From the IMG/VR virus record IMGVR_UViG_3300044632_002453, positions 1-23,340 of that record: 23,340 nt of DNA. The stretch is one strand, 5' to 3'. The position numbers and the translations under genes are program-made. Below are positions 5,162 through 14,958 of this stretch, piece after piece; the first letter of the stretch is position 1; each line of letters opens with the position of its first letter. The notes beneath the pieces are model-generated. The model saw nothing but the letters and a program-made list of their open reading frames with translations, was not told the origin of the DNA and made no database searches. This DNA comes from a virus.

Positions 5162-8100
5162 ATGGCAATTCAAATTGGAAAATACAAAAGACCAGGAATC
5201 TTCATAGAAGAATTTGACAAGTCGCAAATCAGCAGTCCGGTTGTTGAGGGTATCACAAACCTTGTAATTGGAGTGTCTAAAAAAGGACCAGTTAACACGC
5301 CAATTAGAGTAACTACTACTGGTGAGTTGGAATCTATATTTGGTCAGTTAGACAGAGCTTTGGAAAGAAAAGGTTCTTTCTTCCATAGAACTGTGGCTAA
5401 GATGTTAGAAACATCTCCTGTGTTTGCTATGAACTTACTTTATACTGATGACGCACTTGATATAATCGAGTATCAATCTTTATCCGCAGCTTCTGCTAAA
5501 GATAATGACATCGAAAGAGAAGGTCCTTATAGAAGATTCTTTGACACAACAGGTTTCTGGAAGAGAGATACTGAGTCTTTCATTAATCTTACAAAAAATA
5601 ACACTGGATACGCAGATAGAGCATTTAGTATTACTAATATGTCTGATAGATATGTTTCTGTGTTTATTTTCAAATCAACAATGGTTGGTTTTGATAGAAC
5701 TTTACTTGAATGGTATGGTTCTATTGAGAAAATGCCAACTTATGTTAATCCACAAGATTACGCATCTGACTATATGGTTGATGTTGTTATTGTAGCTGGT
5801 GATTGGTCAAATTATCAAGAACTTGCTGTAGATCCAAGATGGAGTGCATACTTCAATAGTTCGGGTCTTAGAAAAGAACAAGTTAGAAATTTTGCTAATG
5901 ATAGAAACACAACAGCTTTAGCTTATTATGAAGGTCTTTCTTTGATTCCATATTTTAGAGATACAAATGGTAGAAATATTTTTATTGAAACAACAATTAA
6001 CAGAGATACGGCAAATACAGGTGTGTTCTGTGCATTTAACACAGATTTGATTGAGGTTGATTACTACAATGGTCTTTTAGACTTATTGGGTAATACTTTA
6101 GTTGATGCTGAAGAAACATCAATTAACTTCTTGTCTTATAGAGAGACAATCACTGAGGCGGTGAAAATTACAAACACTCCACTTGACTTACCAGGTAACG
6201 TAACATCTATGTTAGGTCAATTAGGAGCTTATGGTGTTTCTTATTCTTATACAGGACAATCACCACACGCTTTTGGTGATCCAAATAACTCAAATGTTGG
6301 TTCTCTAACTGAAGGTATTGTTACAAACGCTAATTATAGAACATCTTGGTATTCTGAGTTTTCAGTTTATGGTGTTGAGTTGGCATCAAATACTCCAGTT
6401 ACTTCTGGTTCTAATAGAACAGTTACTTATAATGTTAATAACGGAGCATACTGTATCATTGGAGATAAATTTGTTCCGATTTCAGCTACCGCTACCTTAT
6501 CAATTGATCCAACTGATTATCCTGTAAGTACTCAGGTAGCAACTTTTTCAACGGCTTTCTTAGTTGATTCAACTGGTGAGATTCAGTCTGCTACATCTTT
6601 GGTTGAAGGTGTTAAACCAGCTGTTTCTGCTAATGATATCATTTTAGGATATGTAGACTTTAGTGTTCAAAATGCGGCTTTTGTTACTGTTAACTCAGTT
6701 ACGCCTGTGAATTTAAATACTTCAGGATTTTATGATTACCAATGTGGAACCGCTGCTGGAGATGATTATTATATCTCTTTAGTTGATGCTTCAACTGGAA
6801 CTATTAAAGTTGAGTTTACTGGAACTGATACTAAACAATCTTTAACTAATTATGCACAATATAGAAGATTTAAACTATTTAACAGATTGGTTAATTTGAT
6901 AGACAGTCCAAACAAAAATAAAATGTCATTGTTGTTAAATCCAACAACATATGAAAAATATAGTTTTGAAAATATTGAGATTTCTGATATCGTGTTTAGC
7001 ACAACTCAGAATAAGTCATTTAATTTGAAAACCGGATTGACTTCTACTCAATTGGCTACTATATTAGATGGTTATTTTGTAATATATACAGAAGATAATG
7101 AGTTTCTTTTAGGTAAAGAAGGGGTTAAGACTAAAAACACGGTAGCTGATGCTAATATTGGTGTTGTTGGTAAAGAGTCTGTATTTTATGAAAGATATTT
7201 TGATGGTCAAATCAACACAAAAGACTTCTTCTATAGTAATAGATTATACGTAGATGATTCCGGTGGAACAGTAAATAACTTAATTGGGACATCAGTTGAT
7301 ATTATATTTGTTGATGGTGAAAGTGCACCAGCAACATCTGCTACATCTTCATACGCTGGGTATGACTACGTTGTATTCTACTCTGAGGGTGGAACTGGAT
7401 TTGATACTGAGATAAATTTAGCAACTTTCGAACAAATTCAATTCCCTACATCTGATAAGAATAAGGGTTCATTTACAATTGTTCAAAATGCTGTTGAACC
7501 AGGAGATACACCAACTATGTTGGCAAATGCTCTGGGTTATGTTGGTTCTGACTACTACGCTTACCAAGTTAATGAAGAAGTTGAGTATGAAGAATTGTTT
7601 GATGTGGTTCAAGTAAATGACTACTTAGTTAGACATTATTTAAAAATGTATTTAGATAATAATAACAATCTTGATGTTGAATTCTTGGATGTATTATTAG
7701 AGTCTGATGTTGATGCTGATGTTGAGGCAAATAACACATTCTATATTCAATCTGAAAAGTCAAACTTTAAACAAACATTAGAGTTAGAGCTTCCTACTGG
7801 ATATGTTCAAACACCTAATAAAGTTTTAATCAATGGTGAGAGATATACTGAGGTTAAAGTTGGTGACTTCTTAGAAGCTTATTATGATACTACTGCTTTA
7901 GCTATTGGTCAATTCCCAAGAAAATTAACAAGGGTATTATCTAAAAGACAATACGCTGGTGATCCTACACTTTCTGAAATCACTTGTGATGCTAGAATCG
8001 CTACAAGATTTAGTGGTGGAGCTTTACAGACTACAAGATATTCAACTGTAGACCAATATGCTACAACATATAAGGCTCTTTCATTGAAAGGATTTAGAAT

Positions 8101-9115
8101 TAGACAAGCATCTCTTCCAGATGGAACAGAAGCAAGACAAGATCAAATTTTGGATCTTGTTGGTAAGGGAACACCTCTTTTCAAAGCATTAACCAACAAA
8201 GAAGCAATTGACTTTAGATATTTAATTGACTCATTTGGTTTAGGTTTAACTGAAAAATCAAAACAACAGTTAGTTGATATCTGTGGTGATAGATTAGATG
8301 CATTTGGTTTCTTAAATATGCCATCTGCTAGAATGTTTAAAAACTCTTCTTCACCAACATTTGTTAATAGAGAAGGTGTCCTTCAAATGGAATTTGTTGC
8401 TAAAGGTGGTGATCCTGAAAGTAACCCAGCATTCCTTTACTCATTTGGAGATGGAGCTGGTTCGACTTGTGTTGGATACTTCTTCCCGTATGTTACAATT
8501 GGTGATAATGGTAGACCATTGGATCATCCACCGGCACCGTTTGTTGCTACAACGTATATGAGAAAACACGTATCAAATGCTGGTAACGTAACTGCTTGGA
8601 CGATAGCTGCTGGTGTTACTAACGGTAGAATCATCGGAATTAATTCATTGGAGCAAGATTTGACATCTTCTGATATTGAGTATCTAAATCAAGCACAAAT
8701 GAATCCACTTGTATTTAAAAGAAATAGAGGATACATTATCGAAACTGAGAATACAGCTCAAACTCTTTACAAATCAGCTCTTTCTTACATCCACGTAAGA
8801 GAGGTCTTAATAGAACTTGAAAGAGAGTTATCAAGAATGTTATTAGACTTCCAATGGAAATTTAATACACCAGATATCAGAGCTGAAATTAAGTTAAGAG
8901 CAGACACTATCTGTGACACTTATGTAAGTAAGAATGGTTTATATAACTACTTCAATAAAATGGATGATGAGAATAACACACCAGAAATTATTGATAACCA
9001 AATCGGTGTTCTTGATACATATGTTGAACCAATCAAAGGTATGGGTATTATTGTTAACAACATTACGATACTTAGAACTGGAGCAATCGATGCTGGTGGT
9101 TTCGAAAACGCATAA
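5162..9115 (+). CDS. Tail sheath protein (T4 gp18-like), about twice usual length
   Basis: This is the contractile sheath subunit that surrounds the tail tube and shortens to drive the tube through the host envelope. The N-terminus (KYKRPGIFIEEFD, then TNLVIGVSKKGPVNTPI and GELESIFG) and the C-terminal third carry gp18-family features. The latter include REVLIELERELSRMLLDFQW, the helical arm, the ITILRTGA strand and a long central sheath core. T4 gp18 has 659 residues; this one has 1317. The extra length lies mainly at about residues 390-900, rich in Thr/Ser/Gly/Tyr beta-type sequence, and is probably inserted outer domains exposed on the sheath surface. A TATATATA box precedes it and a strong terminator follows. 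The start ATGGCAATT has an A-rich leader and no Shine-Dalgarno. Confidence 0.95.
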   Translation: MAIQIGKYKRPGIFIEEFDKSQISSPVVEGITNLVIGVSKKGPVNTPIRVTTTGELESIFGQLDRALERKGSFFHRTVAKMLETSPVFAMNLLYTDDALDIIEYQSLSAASAKDNDIEREGPYRRFFDTTGFWKRDTESFINLTKNNTGYADRAFSITNMSDRYVSVFIFKSTMVGFDRTLLEWYGSIEKMPTYVNPQDYASDYMVDVVIVAGDWSNYQELAVDPRWSAYFNSSGLRKEQVRNFANDRNTTALAYYEGLSLIPYFRDTNGRNIFIETTINRDTANTGVFCAFNTDLIEVDYYNGLLDLLGNTLVDAEETSINFLSYRETITEAVKITNTPLDLPGNVTSMLGQLGAYGVSYSYTGQSPHAFGDPNNSNVGSLTEGIVTNANYRTSWYSEFSVYGVELASNTPVTSGSNRTVTYNVNNGAYCIIGDKFVPISATATLSIDPTDYPVSTQVATFSTAFLVDSTGEIQSATSLVEGVKPAVSANDIILGYVDFSVQNAAFVTVNSVTPVNLNTSGFYDYQCGTAAGDDYYISLVDASTGTIKVEFTGTDTKQSLTNYAQYRRFKLFNRLVNLIDSPNKNKMSLLLNPTTYEKYSFENIEISDIVFSTTQNKSFNLKTGLTSTQLATILDGYFVIYTEDNEFLLGKEGVKTKNTVADANIGVVGKESVFYERYFDGQINTKDFFYSNRLYVDDSGGTVNNLIGTSVDIIFVDGESAPATSATSSYAGYDYVVFYSEGGTGFDTEINLATFEQIQFPTSDKNKGSFTIVQNAVEPGDTPTMLANALGYVGSDYYAYQVNEEVEYEELFDVVQVNDYLVRHYLKMYLDNNNNLDVEFLDVLLESDVDADVEANNTFYIQSEKSNFKQTLELELPTGYVQTPNKVLINGERYTEVKVGDFLEAYYDTTALAIGQFPRKLTRVLSKRQYAGDPTLSEITCDARIATRFSGGALQTTRYSTVDQYATTYKALSLKGFRIRQASLPDGTEARQDQILDLVGKGTPLFKALTNKEAIDFRYLIDSFGLGLTEKSKQQLVDICGDRLDAFGFLNMPSARMFKNSSSPTFVNREGVLQMEFVAKGGDPESNPAFLYSFGDGAGSTCVGYFFPYVTIGDNGRPLDHPPAPFVATTYMRKHVSNAGNVTAWTIAAGVTNGRIIGINSLEQDLTSSDIEYLNQAQMNPLVFKRNRGYIIETENTAQTLYKSALSYIHVREVLIELERELSRMLLDFQWKFNTPDIRAEIKLRADTICDTYVSKNGLYNYFNKMDDENNTPEIIDNQIGVLDTYVEPIKGMGIIVNNITILRTGAIDAGGFENA

Positions 9116-9133
9116 CAAACTAAAACAAAAAAA

Positions 9134-9162
9134 ACCCTCAAAGAAATTTGAGGGTTTTTTTA
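9134..9162 (+). terminator. Strong terminator after the tail sheath gene
   Basis: ACCCTCAAA (9134-9142) and TTTGAGGGT (9147-9155) form a perfect 9-bp stem with a GAAA tetraloop, followed by a run of T. An A-run on the 5' side could let it act on the opposite strand too. It lies 19 nt after the sheath stop. Confidence 0.9.
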
Positions 9163-9218
9163 TTTTATTAAAACTTATTTGACAAAATTTATTATAATAG
9201 AGGAAGAAATATATCTAA

Positions 9219-9244: not shown

Positions 9245-10183
9245 ATGTCAGACAACAATAAACCAGAAATGTCAGAAGAAGATTACCTAAAAAGACATCT
9301 AAATGATTTAGAACAGGGTAAAAAAATGGCAGATGGTGATATACCTTTTGTTGAAAAAACAGAATCCTCAAGAACAACCGATTTACAATATTTCAACATG
9401 GATATTAGAGAGCTACCTTGTGGTCAGTTTTATCCAACAGGAACACTATTCTTAGTGAGACCCGCTCAAGTGAAAGAAATTCAAGCATACTCTATGGTAG
9501 ATGATAATAACTTTTATGATATCGTAGAAAAAATGAATGATATGCTTCAAGCTTGTGTTCGAATTAAATATCCGGATGGTAAAATTGGTTCATTTTTAGA
9601 GATTAAAGACCAGGATAGACTTTTCTTAGTTTTCTTAATACGAGAATTAACTTTTCAACAAGGAAACTCATTAGCGGCAACTGCAAGATGTTCTTGTGGT
9701 AGCGAAGTTAAAGTTGAATTGGGTAGAAAAACATTTGTCTTTTATGAGTCAGATGAAAAACTAAGTAAGTATTTCAATCAATCAAGTAGAAATTTTTATT
9801 TTAAAACTATTAATGGTAAGTCTTTTGAATTGACTCCGCCAAATATTGGTTTACAAAAAGCTTTTACTGATTATATTATTAGAGAAAATAATGAGAAAAG
9901 AGCTCCAAATCTTTCATTCTTGAAAATTATCCCATTCTTATTACCAGGAAGAGCTTCTATTACTTATGATGGTATTAAAGCTAAATTAAAAGAATTTGAA
10001 GAAATGGATGATATTTCTTTCCAGTTCTTAAATGCAGCTGTTAGTAAAATGACTTTTGGAATTAAAGAGTTAAAAACTAATTGTGAGTGCGGTGAGGAGG
10101 TCCGCACTGAGATGCAGTTTCCCGACGGAGCCTCAGCTATTTTCGTTATTCCAGATGCCTTTGACGCATATCTTAAAGAATAA
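9245..10183 (+). CDS. Baseplate hub protein, T4 gp26-type family
   Basis: The 312-aa protein resembles the T4 gp26 baseplate-hub family, which takes part in building the central hub of the baseplate. Family-like sequence starts near residue 50 (DIRELPCGQFYP, then RPAQVKEIQ) and continues with LFLVFLIRELTF. Two Cys-x-Cys pairs, Cys149/Cys151 (RCSCGSEV) and Cys280/Cys282 (NCECGEEV), could form one four-Cys zinc site. The C-terminus FPDGASAIFVIPDAF appears to be a natural end. Members I recall are often shorter (T4 gp26 is about 208 aa). The last 35 codons switch to GC-rich codons unusual for this phage and contain a hairpin. A +1-frame ORF overlaps the end. The exact T4 counterpart (gp26 versus gp51) is uncertain. 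Confidence 0.85.
   Translation: MSDNNKPEMSEEDYLKRHLNDLEQGKKMADGDIPFVEKTESSRTTDLQYFNMDIRELPCGQFYPTGTLFLVRPAQVKEIQAYSMVDDNNFYDIVEKMNDMLQACVRIKYPDGKIGSFLEIKDQDRLFLVFLIRELTFQQGNSLAATARCSCGSEVKVELGRKTFVFYESDEKLSKYFNQSSRNFYFKTINGKSFELTPPNIGLQKAFTDYIIRENNEKRAPNLSFLKIIPFLLPGRASITYDGIKAKLKEFEEMDDISFQFLNAAVSKMTFGIKELKTNCECGEEVRTEMQFPDGASAIFVIPDAFDAYLKE
10086..10108 (+). promoter_or_regulatory. GC-rich hairpin with perfect SD-like loop inside the hub gene
   Basis: AGTGCGG (10086-10092) pairs perfectly with CCGCACT (10102-10108) around the 9-nt loop TGAGGAGGT. The loop contains AGGAGGT, the best Shine-Dalgarno match seen in the window. The hairpin sits in a block (10082-10137) of about 62% G+C by my count, far above its surroundings. 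A TTTCCC (10118-10123) follows 9 nt later, and CTGAG (10107-10111) can pair with CTCAG (10132-10136). A role in frameshifting or in reinitiation at 10155 is inferred. The complementarity is directly seen. Confidence 0.55.
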
Positions 10184-10415
10184 GTTGCAATTGCAAAAAC
10201 ATTATCATCTACAAGAGTGGGCTATCGATGTTTGGCCATTCTGGTTGTTAGAGGAAAATGTTAGACTTGTTAATGAGTTGATTGAAGAAGAAGAATCAAA
10301 TCATAAAAAACAAGAACAAGAACAAGGGAAAGGAATGCCGAACTATGATGGAATGATGAAGAATGCTTCTAGTTTCGGAAAAGATATAGGAAACTTCCAA
10401 ATGCCAAAATTCTAA
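10155..10415 (+). CDS. Small ORF overlapping the hub gene in the +1 frame
   Basis: From the ATG at 10155 the ORF gives 86 aa, starting MPLTHILKNKLQ. The frame is open back to 10074, so a +1 ribosomal frameshift from the hub gene could instead fuse it to gp26. Key sequence includes LQEWAIDVWPFWLLEENVRL followed by an acidic, Gln/Lys-rich tail and an MPNYDGMM segment. Tail-assembly chaperone genes of many phages are made as a short protein plus a frameshifted extension (lambda gpG/gpGT). A similar arrangement would fit here, but no homology was shown. ATG 10155 has no SD nearby. The stop at 10413-10415 is followed by a terminator. Confidence 0.7.
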   Translation: MPLTHILKNKLQLQKHYHLQEWAIDVWPFWLLEENVRLVNELIEEEESNHKKQEQEQGKGMPNYDGMMKNASSFGKDIGNFQMPKF

Positions 10416-10430
10416 AACATACTAAAAACA

Positions 10431-10460
10431 AAAAACCCACCAAATTTGGTGGGTTTTTTT
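10431..10460. terminator. Bidirectional terminator between hub ORF and tail tube gene
   Basis: AAAAACCCACC and GGTGGGTTTTT flank AAATTT, a near-perfect palindrome with an A-run on one side and a T-run on the other. It lies between two convergent genes (stops at 10415 and 10477), so it can end transcripts from both. Confidence 0.9.
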
Positions 10461-10476: not shown

Positions 10477-11097
10477 TTAGTATCCAGAAACAATTGGTGG
10501 GTTAATACCAAAGTTTTGGTCAATATATTCATCGATGAAGTAGTCATAAACAAAATCAGCTTGAACGTTTTCAATGATGTTGTTAGAAGACCAGTCAAGT
10601 GAATAACCAGCTAATTTAGTCATTTGGACGTTTTGGAAAGTTACTCTTCTCAATACAACACCTTTTTTATCGTGTTGGTTAACGATAATTGTTCCGATGA
10701 TGTCTGATTTATAGTGAAGAGCACCATTTTGAGAGTTAAATACTAAGTCAAACCATGCTTTCATAGTAGCCCAAGTTTCCATAGAACCTGTGTTGTTTAC
10801 GTTAACCTGAATTGGAATAGAAAGAGTTCCGTCTGTCTTAGTCGGTGGTGCCATAAACATTCTAGTTGAATACTTGAATCTTTGTGTTTTAGCAGCAACG
10901 TCTTGTTCTGTCAAGTTAAGGTCAATTTTAGTTGCATTTTGCAATAAAAGGATAGGGTCTCTTCCTTGTGCTTGTAGCATAACTGGTAAGATGAATGTAA
11001 CCTCAAATAAGTTTAGGTATACTACTTCATCAGGTAACGTTCCAGGTCCCCCTGGAGACCCAGCGTTAATCACTTGTGTAAAATGCGGTAGTGGCAT
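10477..11097 (-). CDS. Tail tube protein (T4 gp19-like)
   Basis: This is the inner tube subunit through which DNA leaves the virion. The 206-residue protein (T4 gp19 is 163) has tube-family features: an N-terminal loop with Gly/Pro (NAGSPGGPG), VYLNLFEVTFILP, a central beta stretch TLSIPIQVNVNNTGS, the motif MKAWFDLVFN, and a C-terminal VTFQNVQMTKLAGYSLDWSS followed by ADFVYDYF. The gene is on the minus strand and converges with the hub gene, whereas in T4 genes 18 and 19 are adjacent and co-oriented. A TATATA box lies 27 nt upstream of the ATG, and the palindromic terminator lies just after its stop. Confidence 0.93.
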   Translation of the reverse strand: MPLPHFTQVINAGSPGGPGTLPDEVVYLNLFEVTFILPVMLQAQGRDPILLLQNATKIDLNLTEQDVAAKTQRFKYSTRMFMAPPTKTDGTLSIPIQVNVNNTGSMETWATMKAWFDLVFNSQNGALHYKSDIIGTIIVNQHDKKGVVLRRVTFQNVQMTKLAGYSLDWSSNNIIENVQADFVYDYFIDEYIDQNFGINPPIVSGY

Positions 11098-14046: not shown

Positions 14047-14958
14047 TTACCAGTAACCAGGATAAGTTTTACCACCCCATAGGTGTCCATATTTGTTAAT
14101 TCTACAGGCCCAATATCCAGCTTTAGTTTTATCTTTCTTAGTTGAACATTTATGTCTAGCAGCAAAAGACTTTCTAGCTTCTGGATTACTTACTTTAGCT
14201 GTTAAACCACCGTGTACATCACCAAAAGCAATCTTTTTAACATTTCCCGTTTTAGGATTTTTTACATATACGTAGTATTTTTTAGTTCCACCACGCATTG
14301 GATAGTTTAACTTAACTTCTTTTCCTTTATATTCAGCTTCATTCAACTCTTCAATGGTTTCCATTGGTAAATCCAAAGGAACTAACTCACCATTAAAGTA
14401 TGCGAATTTTCCTATTTCTGTAGATTCATAAAGTTCTTTATCTATGTCACAAAGTTCAATTTCATTTTTATCAAAAAGTCTACGGGCTTCTTTAATCATT
14501 GAGAAAAACTTTTCAGAACCAGGTCTAAAAATACTTTCTGAAACAGGTATTCCTTTTATAATATGAAACATTAAATCATCAGATGCTAATTCCGAAGACT
14601 CTTCATCTTCGTCACATTTACAATCTTCGCATCCACATTCACAATCTTTACAACCAGTGCAATTATTACAACATCCACATCCTTCACCTTCTTCGTATTC
14701 TGAATCAAATTCATCATCTGACTCTTCATCTCCGAATTCGTTTTCACACTCCATTTTTTCAACATTATCAATATTAATTTCAATAAAAGCTTCAAATTTT
14801 TGAACTTTTTCTAAGTCTTTTTTGAACTTTTTTTCTATTTTTTCTTGGTCTTCTACCGAAGTTTTGATTGTAGGATTAAAATCTTTATCTTTTTCTAAAG
14901 ACTTTGAATTGAAAGTTATTTCTTGATCTACTTCATTAAACTTTTTAATTCGTTTCAT
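14047..14958 (-). CDS. Tagged phage protein with ten-Cys cluster and conserved C-terminal domain
   Basis: The 303-aa protein begins MKRIKKFNEVDQE (tag). Residues 70-120 are very acidic, and residues 94-115 hold ten Cys (CGCCNNC, GCKDCECGC, CKC), metallothionein-like in density. The C-terminal 95 residues form a domain widespread in large phages but of unknown function: YYVYVKNPKTGNVKKIAFGD, then NPEARKSFAARHKC, DKTKAGYWACR and KYGHLWGG. ELNEAEY (residues 204-210) before that domain matches the T4 prohead-protease consensus, with the cut predicted after Glu207. The precursor could therefore release the conserved domain during head maturation. The start lies 8 nt after the upstream stop. The propeptide model is inference. 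Confidence 0.85.
   Translation of the reverse strand: MKRIKKFNEVDQEITFNSKSLEKDKDFNPTIKTSVEDQEKIEKKFKKDLEKVQKFEAFIEINIDNVEKMECENEFGDEESDDEFDSEYEEGEGCGCCNNCTGCKDCECGCEDCKCDEDEESSELASDDLMFHIIKGIPVSESIFRPGSEKFFSMIKEARRLFDKNEIELCDIDKELYESTEIGKFAYFNGELVPLDLPMETIEELNEAEYKGKEVKLNYPMRGGTKKYYVYVKNPKTGNVKKIAFGDVHGGLTAKVSNPEARKSFAARHKCSTKKDKTKAGYWACRINKYGHLWGGKTYPGYW

What the first reader, a model, noticed from the sequence alone, without database searches (positions are those of the whole stretch)
10082..10415. GC-rich hairpin with a perfect SD in its loop at a +1 overlap of the hub gene
Seen: in an AT-rich phage, 10082-10137 is about 62% G+C by my count. It uses codons rare elsewhere here and folds into a 7-bp stem (10086-10092 / 10102-10108) presenting AGGAGGT in the loop. 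It is followed by TTTCCC, and then the hub protein's last codons overlap an ORF open in the +1 frame from 10074. Known: tail-chaperone genes of many phages make a frameshifted extension, and UUU-C is a +1-prone sequence in some systems. Inference: this may be a programmed +1 frameshift that extends the gp26-type protein. Alternatively it may be an SD-driven or hairpin-controlled restart at ATG 10155.
Basis: partly seen in the sequence, partly recalled or inferred. Interest (0 to 1): 0.8.

Follow-up and report, generated by a model that had tools for sequence, protein, structure and literature searches.

The report
+1 frameshift in huge-phage tail chaperone
Near the end of a tail-assembly gene, an RNA hairpin followed by UUU-C very probably makes some ribosomes skip one base, so this huge phage makes a short and a long form of one chaperone; the same signal is kept across distantly related Bacteroidetes phages.

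Summary
Comparative evidence strongly supports a programmed +1 ribosomal frameshift. In 86 of 88 distinct relatives (down to ~20% protein identity), TTT-C lies 15-24 codons before the upstream gene's stop. In a 65-sequence clade, wobble changes fall from ~11 to ~1 per site exactly at TTT. The second frame is coding after the stop. Ten relatives carry a +1-frame stop 3 nt before the site, five with no start codon in the overlap. The upstream hairpin covaries at four base pairs, and GGAGG is kept upstream in 84 of 86, although none of the window's genes shows a GGAGG-type SD at its start. A DNA-pattern scan hit this gene family in 76 of 79 loci. Best reading: a G/GT-type tail-assembly chaperone (T4 gp26/gp51 family, PF12322), made as a 312-aa short and a 389-aa frameshifted form. 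G/GT frameshifting is known. The +1 UUU-C site with an SD-loop hairpin 10 nt upstream is a new variant. Not shown: protein products, efficiency, and whether the SD contacts the ribosome.

The parts
9245..10183 (+). Zero-frame gene: 312-aa short form, gp26-type (PF12322 family) tail-assembly chaperone, TAC-N / 'G'; two CxCG zinc-knuckle-like motifs
   Evidence: PF12322 matched by relatives (L095 29.2 bits against cut-off 24.5); predicted structure (mean pLDDT 83) matches T4-like baseplate hub / hub-assembly proteins in BFVD
10087..10107 (+). Conserved RNA hairpin: stem 10087-10092 / 10102-10107 (7 bp, 10086-10108, in this window), 9-nt loop 10093-10101
   Evidence: 98% of stem cells paired over 49 distinct close relatives, compensatory changes at four pairs in the wider set; upstream 32 nt fold with mean z -2.0
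10095..10101 (+). SD-like AGGAGGT in the hairpin loop (conserved core GGAGG 10096-10100)
   Evidence: GGAGG within 40 nt upstream of the slip site in 84 of 86 distinct relatives; wobble changes in codons 284-287 total 1, and none of 263 other 4-codon windows tested has 1 or fewer
10118..10121 (+). Slip site TTT-C: P-site tRNA-Phe moves from UUU to UUC; the waiting A-site codon is the rare CCC (10121-10123)
   Evidence: TTT CCC 78, TTT CAA 4, TTT CCT 2, one each CGA and CTC at this place among 88 distinct relatives (L085 in that tally has TTT CTA seven codons further on, L092 none); wobble constraint starts here
10118..10183 (+). Dual-coding overlap, hub frame and +1 frame
   Evidence: 20 wobble changes in 21 codons against a mean of 228 (minimum 133) in 247 other 21-codon windows
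10122..10415 (+). +1-frame extension (97 residues plus stop; TAC-C / 'T' domain); the fusion is 389 aa; the frame itself is open from 10074
   Evidence: After the hub stop the +1 frame changes at 3.5/1.8/11.4 per site (positions 1/2/3), as in the hub gene; members match phrog_634 'baseplate hub assembly catalyst' (gp51), best E 3e-4
10430..10459 (.). Perfect 30-bp inverted repeat with A/T runs between the convergent chaperone and tube genes, a likely bidirectional terminator; an associated end signal, not part of the frameshift
   Evidence: Self-match on the minus strand, 100%; sequence

Best explanation
A programmed +1 ribosomal frameshift signal in a G/GT-type tail-assembly chaperone gene. 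Most ribosomes read 9245-10183 and make the 312-aa short chaperone. Some pause with UUU (10118-10120) in the P site and the rare CCC in the A site; [quoted passage not shown] The hairpin just upstream, with GGAGG in its loop, is inferred to stimulate the shift, either by refolding behind the ribosome and pushing it forward, or by pairing of the loop with 16S rRNA, or both. By analogy with lambda gpG/gpGT and T4 gp26/gp51, the short form would coat the tape measure and the T domain would recruit the tube protein. Shown by comparison: overlap, reading frames, slip site, hairpin conservation. Inferred: that both proteins are made, in what ratio, how the hairpin acts, and the chaperone role.
For: (1) TTT-C at the same place in 86 of 88 distinct relatives, including Lak phages and PAU; because the codon after TTT varies (CCC, CAA, CCT, CGA, CTC) while its first C does not, the shift is UUU to UUC rather than on CCC. 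(2) Wobble changes in the hub frame drop from 10.95 to 0.95 per site from TTT onward; just upstream (ACN GAY ATG CAR) they are normal. The same holds against distant relatives, e.g. window vs PAU 2 of 12 wobble differences in the overlap against 135 of 240 in the body. (3) The +1 frame after the hub stop is coding (3.5/1.8/11.4 changes per site). (4) +1-frame stops 3 nt before the slip codon in 10 of 86, five without any start codon in the overlap. (5) Hairpin covariation at pairs 87-107 (GC/CG), 89-105 (GC/AT), 90-104 (TA/CG; Fisher p 1e-4, not corrected for relatedness) and 91-103 (GC/AT); paired fraction 0.940 against a maximum of 0.900 in 2000 column shuffles. (6) Pattern GGAGGTC-N15-TTTCCC-N3-GG-N2-C in IMG/VR: 76 of 79 loci examined lie in this gene family, 76 have a +1 ORF of 60 codons or more. 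(7) Other members of the same Pfam family carry a canonical -1 site (T TTT TTC) at the same gene end in front of a T-like ORF, so a frameshifted G/GT pair is expected here.
Against: No proteomics or reporter data. The SD core lies 17 nt upstream of the P-site codon, far more than the 3 nt of prfB, so a prfB-like SD push does not fit simply; how the hairpin acts is open. Two of the 88 depart: Chryseobacterium phage MA9V-2 (TTT-C seven codons further on, no GGAGG) and LR756504 (TAC CCC instead of TTT-C). Tenacibaculum phage PTm1, outside the 88, has its TTT-C earlier and no GGAGG. In the 735-kb phage group the middle of the overlap is less constrained. The fusion could not be folded (tool rule) and the T domain alone gave a low-confidence model (pLDDT 63).
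Confidence: 0.92

Rival explanations
1. Independent gene: the second ORF is expressed by re-initiation at ATG 10155 (or TTG 10185 just after the hub stop), helped by translational coupling.
For: ATG 10155 is kept in the close clade; the hub stop and the T core are close together; PAU has GGAGCGTATGATG right after its hub stop.
Against: The +1 frame is constrained from 10118, upstream of any possible start; ten relatives close the +1 frame 3 nt before TTT and five have no start codon in the overlap; the ATG is not kept in distant relatives. Re-initiation could still add a little separate T protein.
Confidence: 0.05
2. +1 slip on the CCC proline codon (as in Listeria phage PSA) rather than on UUU; the encoded protein is the same.
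For: CCC follows TTT in 78 of 88 distinct relatives and is rare; CCC-N slips are documented (PMC5009743).
Against: Relatives with TTT CAA, TTT CCT, TTT CGA and TTT CTC keep only TTT-C. LR756504 (TAC CCC A) may be a case where CCC is used.
Confidence: 0.1
3. The GGAGG and hairpin serve an internal zero-frame initiation at ATG 10112 or regulate the downstream gene, and are unrelated to the frame change.
For: AGGAGGT lies 10 nt before ATG 10112, which is invariant in the close clade.
Against: ATG 10112 is not kept in PAU (ATT), L095 (ATA) or L097 (GTT), whereas the GGAGG is; no start of the window's own genes uses a GGAGG-type SD.
Confidence: 0.05
4. Transcriptional slippage or a sequencing error makes the frame change.
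For: None beyond the need to change frame.
Against: TTTCCC is too short a run for polymerase slippage (general knowledge); the arrangement recurs in 86 of 88 distinct relatives and 76 of 79 pattern hits.
Confidence: 0.01

Closest known systems
Lambda gpG/gpGT and other phage tail-assembly chaperone frameshifts (Xu et al. 2004; PMC5009743)
   Different: Those are mostly -1; here +1 on UUU-C with an upstream SD-loop hairpin.
T4-like gp26/gp51 tail-assembly chaperones (Vladimirov et al. 2022, known here only through PMC12846349)
   Same: Same Pfam family PF12322; T domain matches the gp51 PHROG phrog_634 weakly.
   Different: T4 has gene 26 and gene 51 as separate paralogues, both PF12322; cyanophage, Rhizobium, Vibrio and Aeromonas relatives show a -1 T TTT TTC site. 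Here +1.
prfB (RF2) +1 frameshift, including Bacteroidia (PMC8710568, PMC12421855)
   Same: +1 shift, pyrimidine slip codon, internal SD-like sequence kept even in hosts that rarely use SD for initiation.
   Different: No stop codon at the site; SD core 17 nt, not 3 nt, from the slip codon and inside a hairpin loop; not an autoregulatory release-factor gene.
Listeria phage PSA +1 frameshifts on CCC-U (PMC5009743)
   Same: +1 shift in phage structural genes, rare CCC in a low-GC phage.
   Different: Different genes; here UUU-C is the conserved part and CCC is replaceable.
Refolding upstream hairpins as +1 stimulators on 70S ribosomes (PMC6321510)
   Same: A hairpin just upstream of the site favours +1.
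   Different: Designed reporter constructs; here a natural, conserved hairpin that also carries an SD in its loop.

Membership tests
[quoted passage not shown]
G/GT-type tail-assembly chaperone with programmed frameshift | Lies in the tail gene cluster | tested here: met
   Directly between tail sheath (5162-9115) and tail tube (10477-11097) genes; the tape measure gene was not located
G/GT-type tail-assembly chaperone with programmed frameshift | Both forms made at a fixed ratio; G part binds tape measure, T part binds tube protein | not testable with these tools
   No expression or binding data
PF12322 (T4 gp26/gp51) | Profile match above the curated cut-off | tested here: inconclusive
   Met by the relative L095 (29.2 against 24.5 bits), below cut-off in L090 and L108, not reported for the window's own protein; predicted structure matches gp26-type proteins
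prfB-type +1 frameshift | SD-like sequence 3 nt before CUU and an in-frame UGA at the site | tested here: not met
   UUU CCC, no stop codon, GGAGG core 17 nt upstream in a hairpin loop
Canonical -1 X XXY YYZ frameshift | Second ORF in the -1 frame with a heptamer | tested here: not met
   Second ORF is in the +1 frame in this window and its relatives
PSA-type CCC +1 frameshift | Slip codon CCC | tested here: not met
   CCC replaced by CAA, CCT, CGA or CTC in relatives while TTT-C stays

The most novel reading that the evidence does not exclude
An SD presented in the loop of a refolding hairpin is a new class of +1 stimulator that acts through the anti-SD of Bacteroidetes ribosomes during elongation, although that anti-SD is occluded and hardly used for initiation in such hosts; phages whose hosts have another anti-SD would then carry another loop.
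Probability: 0.35. Interest if true: 0.82.

Novelty: new variant of a known kind. Interest (0 to 1): 0.7.

Why it matters
It shows that the largest known phages (Mahaphages, Lak) and other Bacteroidetes phages such as Tenacibaculum phage pT24 and Flavobacterium phage MaF61 probably set the ratio of their tail chaperones by a +1 rather than a -1 frameshift, and it gives annotators a DNA signature that finds this gene pair almost without error. It also offers a test of an open question: what the conserved anti-SD of Bacteroidetes ribosomes does when it is not used to start translation. In this phage none of the window's genes starts behind a GGAGG-type SD, yet GGAGG in the frameshift hairpin hardly ever changes. 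Finally, the natural upstream hairpin is a ready substrate for measuring how structure behind the ribosome drives forward slippage.

Tried and rejected
Restart at ATG 10155, internal zero-frame start at ATG 10112, CCC slip and transcriptional slippage were weighed and set aside (see rivals). A -2 shift gives the same frame but no tRNA re-pairing at TTT CCC. Downstream RNA structure: mean z -0.5 over 80 nt, no support. Rfam: only sub-threshold matches, all over the terminator-like repeat. Profile comparison with single T4 gp26, gp51 or gp51 C-terminal sequences was too weak to use; the Pfam, PHROG and fold evidence was used instead. Fold search of the zero-frame model in the PDB: nothing significant. 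Sequence search of the PDB: nothing usable. I first thought the T4 'two paralogues instead of a frameshift' relation might be new; PMC12846349 cites Vladimirov et al. 2022, whose title reports T4-like tail-assembly chaperones made by a mechanism other than frameshifting, so it is treated as known; that paper itself is not held.

Full report
What is there. The window is a 23,340-base virus record. Its closest named relatives here are the 634-kb and 642-kb huge phages LR745206 and LR756502, 74% identical in this protein; the huge-phage paper places its genomes above 634 kb and the Lak phages in the Mahaphage clade and predicts Bacteroidetes hosts (PMC7162821). The gene at 9245-10183 sits between the tail sheath and tail tube genes.

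Is it more than chance. The DNA pattern GGAGGTC-N15-TTTCCC occurs once in the window and never in 100 shuffles. The scan asked only for DNA, so the return of one gene family is informative, though the set is biased towards GGAGG by construction.

Frameshift. I gathered 179 loci, 88 distinct. In 86, TTT followed by C lies 15-24 codons before the hub stop; the next codon is CCC in 78 and CAA, CCT, CGA or CTC in the others. On a 65-sequence tree, hub wobble sites change 10.95 times per site over the gene and 0.95 times from TTT to the stop; the lowest of 247 other 21-codon windows has 133 changes against 20 here. Just before TTT the wobble sites are free (ACN 18, GAY 16, CAR 10 changes), so the second coding layer starts at TTT. 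Beyond the hub stop the +1 frame shows the position pattern of a coding gene (3.5/1.8/11.4). Ten of 86 distinct relatives have a TGA or TAA in the +1 frame 3 nt before the slip codon; five of these have no ATG, GTG or TTG in the overlap. The overlap is thus most simply translated in the +1 frame by ribosomes that came from the zero frame.

Which codon slips. A tRNA-Phe reads UUU and UUC alike, so +1 movement on UUU-C costs no pairing (established knowledge). Keeping the C while the rest of the following codon changes is what that model predicts. CCC, the rarest proline codon here (8 of 249), probably helps by making the A site slow; UUU and CCC are reported as the next most slippery codons after CUU in the prfB setting (PMC10885494).

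The hairpin. Over 49 distinct close relatives the six pairs 87-107 to 92-102 form in 98% of cases, against at most 66% when one strand is slid. In a wider set of 113 segments there are compensatory swaps at four pairs: 87-107 GC to CG, 89-105 GC to AT, 90-104 TA to CG, and 91-103 GC to AT, the last in PAU. In several relatives the cysteine motif encoded by this stretch is lost, and the stem persists with new letters (ACGG/CCGT), so the protein motif cannot explain the stem. That set was selected by GGAGGT and TTTCC and holds a few chance matches; the count not selected in this way is GGAGG upstream in 84 of 86, Lak-B being the exception. More distant phages seem to have their own stems around the same loop (MaF61 GACTTC/GAAGTC, pT24 GGTCAC/GTG-T-ACC, read by eye); these are not always the predicted minimum-energy fold.

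What it does. The protein family is PF12322, which holds both T4 gp26 and gp51, and the predicted structure matches T4-like hub-assembly proteins. T4 gp26 and gp51 are listed as hub assembly chaperones (PMC3004832), and T4-like tail-assembly chaperones have been identified (Vladimirov et al. 2022, cited in PMC12846349). In two cyanophages and in Rhizobium, Sinorhizobium, Acidovorax, Vibrio and Aeromonas phages the gp26-type gene ends in a -1 slippery run in front of a T-like ORF. The window's pair is therefore best read as a short and a long chaperone made by +1 shift.

How the hairpin may act. Two facts pull apart. Upstream hairpins and close SD duplexes favour +1 on 70S ribosomes (PMC6321510), which fits a hairpin ending 10 nt before the slip codon. 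But the GGAGG core is 17 nt away, too far for the prfB geometry. I favour refolding of the hairpin behind the ribosome as the push, with loop pairing to 16S rRNA as a pause or anchor; this step is inference (I give about 0.75 that the hairpin stimulates the shift by one route or the other). The host setting makes it sharper: Bacteroidia ribosomes occlude the anti-SD and rarely use SD for initiation (PMC8710568), and none of the window's gene starts checked shows more than a single AGGA, while GGAGG in this hairpin is almost fixed.

Limits. No expression data were available. The Chryseobacterium phages MA9V-1 and MA9V-2 lack GGAGG and have TTT-C seven codons on; the paper on anti-SD function states that Weeksellaceae, which include Chryseobacteria, have another anti-SD. 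This fits an rRNA-pairing role, but PTm1 also lacks GGAGG, so I draw no conclusion from it.

Noticed in passing
L187, L188, L189, L190, L191, L192, L194 (ends of gp26-type genes): gp26-type genes of cyanophages, Rhizobium, Sinorhizobium, Acidovorax, Vibrio and Aeromonas phages end in T TTT TTC (or T TTT TTT) before a T-like ORF in the -1 frame, annotated there (where at all) as a separate gp51 or hypothetical gene.
   Followed up: partly
L085 and L185 (Chryseobacterium phages MA9V-2, MA9V-1): No GGAGG in the expected place; GCGAGACAG lies at the loop position and TTT-C is seven codons further on. The host clade has an alternative anti-SD (UCUCA) according to PMC8710568.
   Followed up: partly
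window 10430-10459 and 9114-9176: Perfect 30-bp inverted repeat between convergent genes, a likely bidirectional terminator; a 78% similar stretch follows the sheath gene.
   Followed up: no
L088/L101 (Lak-B) +1 ORF: The Lak-B T ORF contains an in-frame TAG that reads as Q in the code 15 translation; Lak-C1 has a Glu codon at that position.
   Followed up: no
L216, L217, L225, L254, L259, L268: The second CxCG motif of the chaperone is lost in a sub-lineage while the RNA stem is rebuilt with compensatory letters.
   Followed up: yes
window 14047-14958 (minus strand): Protein with a dense cysteine/acidic stretch (GCGCCNNCTGCKDCECGCEDCKCDEDEE) and a basic C-terminal region; function not examined.
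   Followed up: no
L092 (LR756504): TAC CCC ATC in place of TTT-C and loss of the cysteine motif; CCC-A or AAA-A may serve as slip site.
   Followed up: partly
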